From Pelecanus crispus (Eukaryota > Chordata > Aves > Pelecaniformes > Pelecanidae), in the NCBI RefSeq assembly GCF_030463565.1, contig NC_134643.1, positions 1,870,001-1,934,000 on the forward strand: a stretch of DNA of 64,000 bases, read 5' to 3'. The position numbers were made by a program, and so were the translations under genes. The stretch's first letter is position 1. Each line of letters starts with the position of its first letter. This document shows positions 13,901-15,404 of this stretch, one piece after another. The notes beneath the pieces are model-generated. The model was not told the DNA's origin. It made no database searches and saw only the letters and a list, made by a program, of their open reading frames with translations.

Positions 13901-15404
13901 GCTTTGCCTTCACCCACAGTTCTGTGAGTTCATCCAGTGCCCAGCTCTTGGGTCTGGCAACCGTGGCTGGCCGCGGTTTTTGGGTGGGGAGGGATGTCTC
14001 TTCCCATTTGGGATGGCGAGTGGGTGGAGGTGGTTTCCTCCCATCCCTGGAGACGCTTGGGCAGGAGGGCGTCATCTGTCCCCCAAGGTGAGGAGGATTC
14101 ACATCCCTGTGACGGTCTCGCCGCCATCTGCTCCTAGAAAAAAACGGGTAGATGTGGCGCTTTGGGACATGGTTTAGTCTAGTCTACCCTTGATTGGTTT
14201 AGTGTGGACTTGGTAGTGTAGGTTAATGGTTGGACTGGATGATCTTAAAGGTCTTTTCCAACCTAAATGATTCTATGATTCTATGATTCTAGAACCGCAT
14301 GTGGCGCAAGACAAGGTCCATCAATGCCGGCTCCCACTGCATCGGCGTGGACCCCAACCGAAACTGGGATGCGGGCTTTGGAGGTGAGAGCCAGGCCACC
14401 AGGTCCCCACACCAGGCATTGCTCGTGCCTCAAAGCATTGAAGCCTCCTGCTAGAGGGGAGAGACCTGGGGGCTAGAAACCCTTCCCCAGGGCAGCCTCT
14501 CCGCATGGTGCCTCTTCCACCGTGCCCCAGGCTCCGGCTCCAGCGGCAACCCCTGCTCTGAGATCTACCGTGGCCCCCACATCCACTCCGAGCGTGAAGT
14601 GAAAGCCATCGTGGACTTCATCAGCAGCCACGGGAATGTGAAATCGGTCATCTCCATCCACAGCTATTCCCAGATGCTGCTTTTCCCCTACGGCTACAAG
14701 AGAGCGCCTGCGCCTGACTACCAGGAACTGGTGAGATGGCCCCAAAATGTAGACATGGGGCTGCAGGTGCCAGCCTTGCTGGAAGAGTCAGGTTGGATCA
14801 TCCCAGGACCCTATCTGCTCTTCTCATTAGATGCAACCTGCACATTGAAGCCCATCACTTGGTTCTTGGAGGGAGGGCGATTGCAAGGCGTACCTCCCGT
14901 CCATCAAAAAATTAAGGGTGTTTGGGGAAAAGCAAGAGCAGAGGGGGTGGGAAACAATGCTGGGCTCTAGACCCCGCTGCCCCGGGGTTTCTGCTGCCCC
15001 AAGGTCTTGGTCTACCAGGTCTCACCACTTTTGGGCTCTCCCTTGCAGAACGAACTGGCTAAAAAAGCAGTGAGCGACTTGGCCGCTGTGTATGGGACAA
15101 AATACACCTACGGCAGCGTCGCGGACACCATCTGTAAGCGTCCCTTCCTCATCCCCGTGGTATCGTGTCCATGAGTGCTCAGCGTTGGGATCACATCTCC
15201 CCTCCTCTCCCCGCAGACCTGGCAGATGGCACCACCATTGACTGGGCCTACGACAATGGGGTGAAATATTCCTTCACCTTCGAGCTGAGGGACACGGGGC
15301 GCTACGGTTTCCTCCTGCCCAGCACCCAGATCATCCCCACTGCTACTGAGACCTGGCCGGCGCTGCTGGACATCATGGTCCACGTCCTGGAGCATCCGTA
15401 CTGA
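10904..15404 (+). CDS. CPA5: Carboxypeptidase A5-like, complete
   Basis: Secreted M14A carboxypeptidase precursor of 419 codons. Exons: 10904-10968, 11674-11755, 12474-12608, 12776-12874, 13400-13501, 13576-13677, 13813-13923, 14293-14383, 14531-14730, 15049-15133 and 15217-15404 (TGA). The start [16 protein letters not shown] is a signal peptide. Then come an activation propeptide to about residue 110 and the catalytic domain with HSREW, MWRKTR, NRNWD, HSYSQ, Tyr248, Ile255 and Glu270. Assignment to CPA5 rather than CPA4 or CPA1 rests on [39 protein letters not shown] and HSYSQML, which match mammalian CPA5, and on its place between CPA2 and CPA1. Pocket Ser194/Leu203/Thr268 is A1-like, so smaller hydrophobic C-terminal residues are the likely substrates. 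The exon 8 acceptor abuts a CR1 tail (see findings). Confidence 0.88.
12973..13006. repeat. (AC)17 microsatellite in CPA5 intron 4
   Basis: Seventeen uninterrupted AC units followed by a short C run; probably length-polymorphic. Confidence 0.95.
14139..14292 (+). mobile_element. CR1 LINE 3' fragment touching CPA5 exon 8
   Basis: Single-tail CR1 starting in the last ORF2 codons (AAAAACGGGTAGATGTGG) and ending in ATTCTATGATTCTATGATTCTA. The next bases, G then AACCGC, are the splice acceptor and the first codons of CPA5 exon 8. CTAG-AA stands on both sides of the element. Confidence 0.92.

What the first reader, a model, noticed from the sequence alone, without database searches (positions are those of the whole stretch)
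14130..14300. CR1 inserted exactly at the CPA5 exon 8 splice acceptor and appears to have duplicated it
Before the CR1 stands a good-looking acceptor, CATCTGCTCCTAG/AA (AG at 14136-14137). After the CR1 stands the acceptor that keeps the CPA5 frame, TATGATTCTAG/AACCGC (AG at 14291-14292). CTAGAA is present on both sides. The simplest reading is that the LINE landed on the original acceptor and a short duplication or tail microhomology left a working AG next to the exon, with the ATTCTATG repeats now acting as the pyrimidine tract. The old acceptor is still there. If used, it would add CR1 sequence and reach a stop after 14 codons, removing Arg127, Arg145, Tyr198, Tyr248 and Glu270. So the gene may have two competing acceptors 155 bases apart, with a transposon tail in the essential one.
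Basis: partly seen in the sequence, partly recalled or inferred. Interest (0 to 1): 0.75.

Follow-up and report, generated by a model that had tools for sequence, protein, structure and literature searches.

The report
Young transposon at a splice acceptor
In what looks like a bird digestive-enzyme gene, a young piece of CR1 transposon sits exactly between an old splice site and the exon it apparently served, so the gene now has two possible splice sites and only the one at the transposon's tail gives the full protein.

Summary
A young, 5'-truncated CR1 LINE 3' end (about 14139-14290) separates a typical acceptor (AG 14136-14137) from exon 8 of the middle gene of a three-gene carboxypeptidase A cluster. 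Exon 8 now follows AG 14291-14292; CTAGAA stands on both sides, 155 bases apart. Only AG 14292 gives the intact 419-aa enzyme; AG 14137 adds 14 codons and a stop. Two refinements. (1) Sibling copies show that the left CTAG is host sequence, and 0 of 29 siblings sampled without tail bias end in ATTCTAG, so at least the G is most simply doubled. CTA also belongs to the CR1 tail unit and the As to its A-run: the duplication is 1-6 bp, and siblings show no excess of such repeats. (2) A 27-site local matrix scores the old acceptor above the new one (6.4 against 1.9); a recalled human-like composition makes them about equal over ten bases. Splice use, an empty allele and fixation could not be tested. 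The kind is known: the dog merle SINE at an intron-exon boundary. Ordinary in kind, a neat test case.

The parts
10904..15404 (+). Middle carboxypeptidase A gene (CPA5 by position only), 11 exons: 10904-10968, 11674-11755, 12474-12608, 12776-12874, 13400-13501, 13576-13677, 13813-13923, 14293-14383, 14531-14730, 15049-15133, 15217-15404; intact 419-aa reading frame
   Evidence: Exon model with GT-AG at all ten introns and one open frame; Propep_M14 and Peptidase_M14; full-length match to carboxypeptidase A1, 5om9
14100..14137 (+). Apparent old acceptor of intron 7: branch-like TTCAC and GTGACG, pyrimidine-rich CTCGCCGCCATCTGCTCCTAG, AG 14136-14137
   Evidence: Local acceptor matrix score 6.42, at or above 9 of 27 CPA acceptors of this window
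14134..14139 (+). Left copy of CTAGAA at the 5' junction; CTAG is host sequence
   Evidence: Sequence; 39 of the 49 other copies read TTC before the A-run, 7 read TTA, 3 are otherwise different, none reads CTAG
14139..14290 (+). 5'-truncated CR1 LINE 3' end, same strand as the gene (ends ambiguous by 1-3 bases each)
   Evidence: 39 other scored genome places at 96-99% identity; 0 differences in 118 columns from the majority of 50 copies, ours included; one copy elsewhere identical over 118
14267..14291 (+). CR1 octamer tail, ATTCTATG-type repeats, now where the pyrimidine tract would be
   Evidence: Tandem repeat, period 8, 3.1 copies, 100% matches
14289..14294 (+). Right copy of CTAGAA, holding AG 14291-14292 needed for the intact reading frame
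   Evidence: Sequence; frame; matrix score 1.89, at or above 2 of 27
14293..14383 (+). Exon 8 (91 bp) starting AACCGC (NRMWRKTRS)
   Evidence: The two neighbouring CPA genes start this exon at the same codon: AATCGC at 4976 and AACCGT at 18030
14138..14182 (+). Predicted extra exon sequence if AG 14137 is used: 14 codons, then TAG at 14180-14182
   Evidence: Translation, stop codon check

Best explanation
A CR1 LINE was copied into the intron 7-exon 8 junction of a carboxypeptidase A gene, in the direction of the gene. Before the insertion the junction read CATCTGCTCCTAG/AACCGC (inferred by joining the flanks). The new DNA began with the octamer tail, whose ATTCTA overlapped the host CTA, and stopped early at the CR1's A-run, which overlapped the host AA; a host stretch of 1-6 bases holding the acceptor G now stands on both sides. 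The two junctions, the CR1 identity and the reading frames are shown; the empty site and the order of steps are inferred. Consequence: the old branch-like site, tract and AG remain but lead into CR1 sequence and a stop after 14 codons, while exon 8 can be joined correctly only through the AG at the CR1 tail. Most likely both AGs are used to some degree and the old one takes an appreciable share, so full-length enzyme is reduced and the wrong transcripts are cleared by nonsense-mediated decay. Splice use is inferred, not shown. The confidence given is for the insertion on the acceptor; for mixed use of both AGs alone I put about 0.45.
For: Three CPA genes in the window start this exon at the same codon, fixing AG 14292 as the frame-keeping acceptor. 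Most sibling copies continue beyond our left junction into TTC and further CR1 sequence, so ours is truncated there and CTAG is host. Truncation points differ widely between copies, as reported for CR1 (PMC4316615, passages). Sampled without tail bias, 0 of 29 other copies end in ATTCTAG, so the right-hand G is most simply host. Old acceptor 6.42, new 1.89 on a 27-site local matrix; a YTNAY branch motif stands before the old one only. The CR1 is young: 0 differences in 118 columns from the majority. Intron 7 and exon 8 DNA match elsewhere only at the neighbouring gene's exons. The rest of the modelled gene is intact.
Against: No RNA evidence and no orthologue or allele without the CR1 was obtained. 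A recalled human-like composition scores the two tracts about equal over ten positions (1.96 and 2.04) and the old one slightly better over sixteen (1.33 and 0.31), so the ranking depends on the matrix. Another AG of the same intron (14052) scores as high as the old acceptor, 6.40. A presumed true acceptor of the same exon in the upstream CPA gene (4976) scores -1.46, below the CR1-tail acceptor, so a weak acceptor may suffice. The group shows no clear excess of junction repeats, so the 6-mer may be partly chance. The intact frame and the ten catalytic and binding residues also fit a new acceptor that works well.
Confidence: 0.75

Rival explanations
1. The new acceptor at the CR1 tail works well and takes nearly all splicing; the old AG is a silent relic. 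The CR1 supplies weak branch sites (CTAAAT at -26, ATGATT at -22) and the octamers serve as a poor pyrimidine tract.
For: The gene is otherwise intact and the ten checked residues are present. There are 40 bases without another AG before AG 14292, as for the old one; two of 27 presumed true CPA acceptors score as low or lower, one of them before the same exon of the upstream gene.
Against: 25 of 27 local acceptors score higher and no YTNAY branch motif lies within 60 bases, while the old site has one. The insertion is so young that an intact gene says little.
Confidence: 0.25
2. The old acceptor takes nearly all splicing and the gene is effectively a recent null, perhaps a segregating allele or a pseudogene in the making.
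For: Old acceptor stronger on the local matrix, with a YTNAY branch motif in place and AG 14137 the first AG after it; a stop follows after 14 codons.
Against: No other disabling change in the 11 exons or at the other nine introns' GT-AG ends. Two separate acceptor regions this far apart can both work (recalled).
Confidence: 0.25
3. There was no duplication: the CR1 inserted with blunt ends and the AG beside the exon comes from a CR1 tail variant (ATTCTAG), the host keeping only the left AG.
For: A tail unit reading ATTCTAGG occurs inside the tail of one copy, L040. CTA is common to tail and host. The group shows no clear excess of junction repeats.
Against: 0 of 29 unbiased copies end in ATTCTAG. 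It needs a G exactly at the end of the tail; shared words of 6 or more arise in about 1.6% of mismatched junctions.
Confidence: 0.1
4. Assembly error.
For: Only one assembly was available.
Against: The stretch lies within a 228-Mb contig and its unique flanks match one place; both junctions make biological sense.
Confidence: 0.02

Closest known systems
Dog merle allele: SINEC_Cf at the intron 10-exon 11 boundary of PMEL (PMC7349775, passages seen)
   Same: A retroposon sits at an intron-exon boundary; the target-site duplication includes the original acceptor; splicing goes to the original or a cryptic acceptor, giving normal or abnormal protein.
   Different: Merle is a SINE in reverse orientation with a 15-bp duplication and a poly(T) tract whose length sets the splice choice. 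Here a sense-strand LINE end with an octamer tail and a 1-6 bp overlap; no RNA evidence and no known phenotype.
CR1 exonizations in chicken (PMC2911107, passages seen)
   Same: CR1 sequence in a gene may be taken into mRNA; that paper states that most exonizations it found in chicken come from CR1.
   Different: Those are exons or alternative splice sites drawn from intronic insertions; here the insertion separates an existing acceptor from its exon.
Avian CR1 LINEs in general (PMC8665684 and PMC4316615, passages seen)
   Same: Octamer microsatellite tail and heavy 5' truncation (a conserved 3' hairpin is reported there; not tested here).
   Different: Nothing seen in the element differs; the place is what is unusual.

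Membership tests
CR1 LINE insertion | 3' end similar to dispersed copies in the same genome | tested here: met
   39 other scored places at 96-99%; 39 others scored at 96-100% with the tail left out
CR1 LINE insertion | Octamer tail at the 3' end | tested here: met
   14267-14291, period 8; motif assignment to CR1 recalled and in PMC4316615 (octamer mentioned without its letters)
CR1 LINE insertion | Variable 5' truncation, with source sequence continuing in siblings | tested here: met
   Upstream homology from under 10 to over 1300 bases among 50 copies
CR1 LINE insertion | Subfamily name (CR1-J, -Y, -X and so on) | not tested
   No repeat library was used; the CR1 name itself is recalled
Acceptor duplication by retroposon insertion (merle type) | AG on both sides of the insert, frame kept by the one next to the exon | tested here: met
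Acceptor duplication by retroposon insertion (merle type) | True target-site duplication beyond chance and tail overlap | tested here: inconclusive
   6-mer; about 1.6% of mismatched pairs reach 6 or more; only the G is free of tail and A-run overlap
Acceptor duplication by retroposon insertion (merle type) | Empty site in relatives or in the other allele | not testable with these tools
   No bird orthologue held; no second copy of the locus found in this genome
Acceptor duplication by retroposon insertion (merle type) | Both acceptors used in RNA | not testable with these tools
   No RNA data
Pancreatic-type carboxypeptidase A (M14A) | Propeptide and zinc carboxypeptidase domains with catalytic residues | tested here: met
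CPA5 as a named orthologue | Orthology by tree or synteny with other species | not tested
   Middle of three CPA genes; the gene order of other species is recalled only

The most novel reading that the evidence does not exclude
The CR1 octamer tail has become the essential branch/pyrimidine region of a working digestive-enzyme gene, and changes in the number of octamers between individuals tune the share of full-length enzyme, a LINE counterpart of the dog merle tail.
Probability: 0.1. Interest if true: 0.65.

Novelty: new member of a known kind. Interest (0 to 1): 0.38.

Why it matters
It is a clean natural test of acceptor choice: two acceptor regions 155 bases apart, one old and one made in a single recent step by a transposon tail, with opposite results for the protein. 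CR1 is the most abundant transposon family in birds, and a hit on an acceptor that leaves a usable AG shows one way a gene can survive, or half survive, the loss of an essential splice site. It would matter more if RNA showed that the tail works or that its length varies.

Tried and rejected
Looked for a second copy of the locus without the CR1 in the same genome: the intron 7 query and the exon 8 query each found only the locus itself and one partial match at the neighbouring gene's exons, so no empty allele.

First impression that CR1 tails often end in ATTCTAG (11 of 27 fetched copies) was rejected: the query included our own tail and G and so selected for them. With the tail left out, 0 of 29 other copies do (30 of the 40 scored places were fetched, one being ours; tails seen).

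Test for target-site duplications in the group: 42 of 50 copies were used; 8 were dropped because the element ran to or near the edge of the fetched stretch. Own junctions share a word of 6 or more in 3 of 42 (ours included), mismatched pairs in about 1.6% of 1722; the whole distributions look alike. 5' ends were set by local alignment and may be off by a few bases.

Acceptor ranking: the 27-site local matrix (8 sites of the upstream gene, 9 of this gene without the tested one, 10 of the downstream gene) favours the old site. A recalled human-like composition makes the tracts about equal over ten bases. In the same intron, AG 14052 scores 6.40 and AGs 13937 and 14087 (3.04, 4.07) also score above the new acceptor. 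I therefore claim no firm ranking.

A first exon model was shifted by one base at several borders and gave stops; it was replaced by the model.

Literature: seven searches. CR1, splice acceptor, avian, exonization (no paper); CR1 with target site duplication (20 of 41 listed); merle-type SINE insertion (10 of 13); CR1 with splicing in chicken (15 of 16); CR1 insertion with exon boundary (10 of 54, none of the listed ones holding 'CR1 insertion'); duplicated acceptor terms (2 of 2); CPA5 in chicken (10 of 52). No title or abstract start in these listings names this insertion or a CR1 on an acceptor; apart from passages of four papers only listings were seen, so absence from print is not shown.

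Full report
What is there. The window lies in a 1.31-Gb genome (G000, contig C1 1870001-1934000), which its CR1 and gene content mark as a bird (inference; species not given). It holds three carboxypeptidase A genes in a row: one at about 1746-7193 (partly modelled), one at 10904-15404 and one at 16210-19394. The middle one has 11 exons, GT-AG at all ten introns and an intact 419-residue frame. It carries Propep_M14 and Peptidase_M14, matches carboxypeptidase A1 (5om9) over its whole length, is 64% identical to its downstream neighbour over 403 residues and keeps the ten checked catalytic and binding residues (residue list recalled). CPA5 is the name by position only.

The junction. Exon 7 ends at 13923. 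AG 14136-14137 follows CATCTGCTCCT; AG 14291-14292 follows TATGATTCT and touches exon 8, which begins AACCGC. CTAGAA lies at 14134-14139 and 14289-14294. The other two genes begin this exon at the same codon (AATCGC at 4976, AACCGT at 18030), so AG 14292 is the frame-keeping acceptor. From AG 14137 the frame runs 14 codons to TAG at 14180-14182, leaving 246 residues without Arg127, Asn144, Arg145, His196, Tyr198, Tyr248 and Glu270. Three exon junctions lie downstream of that stop, so decay of the transcript is expected (established rule, not tested).

The insert. It is the 3' end of a CR1 LINE (family name recalled) on the gene's strand with a 3.1-copy octamer tail. In the same genome the 39 other scored places match it at 96-99% (40 of 893 candidates scored). 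With the tail left out of the query, 40 of 99 candidates were scored, one other place being identical over all 118 bases. Of 57 fetched copies 7 were duplicates; among the 50 left, ours included, our copy has 0 differences from the column majority in 118 columns, the others 2.2% on average. The copies were picked by likeness to ours, so the majority leans towards it. With a recalled bird rate of about 2 changes per billion sites per year, no change in 118 bases gives an upper bound of roughly 13 million years.

Where the junction letters come from. Of the 49 other copies 39 read TTC, 7 read TTA and 3 something else before the A-run; none reads CTAG, and homology between siblings goes on upstream. 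So the CTAG at our left junction is host and our copy is truncated at the A-run. On the right, the tail unit ATTCTATG explains ATTCTA but not the following G; 0 of 29 other copies sampled without tail bias end in ATTCTAG, though one (L040) has such a unit inside its tail. So the G is most simply host on both sides; CTA overlaps the tail and AA overlaps the A-run. The duplication is therefore 1 to 6 bases. Among 42 copies with a visible 5' end, shared junction words are not clearly longer than in 1722 mismatched pairs (6 or more: 3 of 42, against about 1.6%), so duplications are not a general mark of this group by this test.

Was AG 14137 the old acceptor? No host base lies between tail and exon, so the old tract must lie to the left. 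The left junction ends in an AG scoring 6.42 on a matrix of 27 CPA acceptors from this window, a score reached by 4.6% of the 4674 + strand AGs tested and at or above 9 of the 27. A YTNAY branch motif stands 36 bases before it. AG 14052 in the same intron scores 6.40, so the score alone does not decide; the position at the junction does. Joining the flanks gives CATCTGCTCCTAG/AACCGC. I regard this as the old acceptor with high confidence, though no empty allele was seen.

How it probably works now. AG 14292 scores 1.89 on the same matrix (at or above 2 of 27), has TNA-type but no YTNAY branch motif within 60 bases, and 40 bases without another AG before it, as has the old site. A recalled human-like composition rates the ten-base tracts about equal and the sixteen-base ones slightly in favour of the old. 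The presumed acceptor of the same exon in the upstream gene scores still lower, -1.46, so weak need not mean dead. I expect mixed use with a real loss of full-length product, but use of either site is inference.

Against what is known. The merle SINE of dogs sits at an intron-exon boundary with a 15-bp duplication including the original acceptor, and splicing goes to the original or a cryptic site by tail length (PMC7349775, passages). CR1 is reported as the main source of exonized sequence in chicken (PMC2911107, passages). The present case is a new example of that kind in a LINE and, by inference, a bird. Rough numbers from memory (some 160,000 acceptors, 6 positions each, 1.3 Gb, about 100,000 CR1 copies) suggest tens of such hits by chance before selection, so the event itself is not surprising.

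Odds.

Noticed in passing
910-1189, 24321-24538, 42962-43244, 49385-49657 (last one on the - strand): Four CR1 insertions seem to carry two 3'-end-like parts in a row, separated by a similar linker (AATCCAGCCACCA at 1043, 24390, 43095 and, on the - strand, 49524): perhaps a CR1 variant with a doubled 3' end. Seen.
   Followed up: partly
12973-13006: An (AC)n run in intron 4 of the same gene.
   Followed up: no
4955-4976: The presumed exon 8 acceptor of the upstream CPA gene scores lowest of the 27 on the local matrix (-1.46), lower than the CR1-tail acceptor.
   Followed up: no
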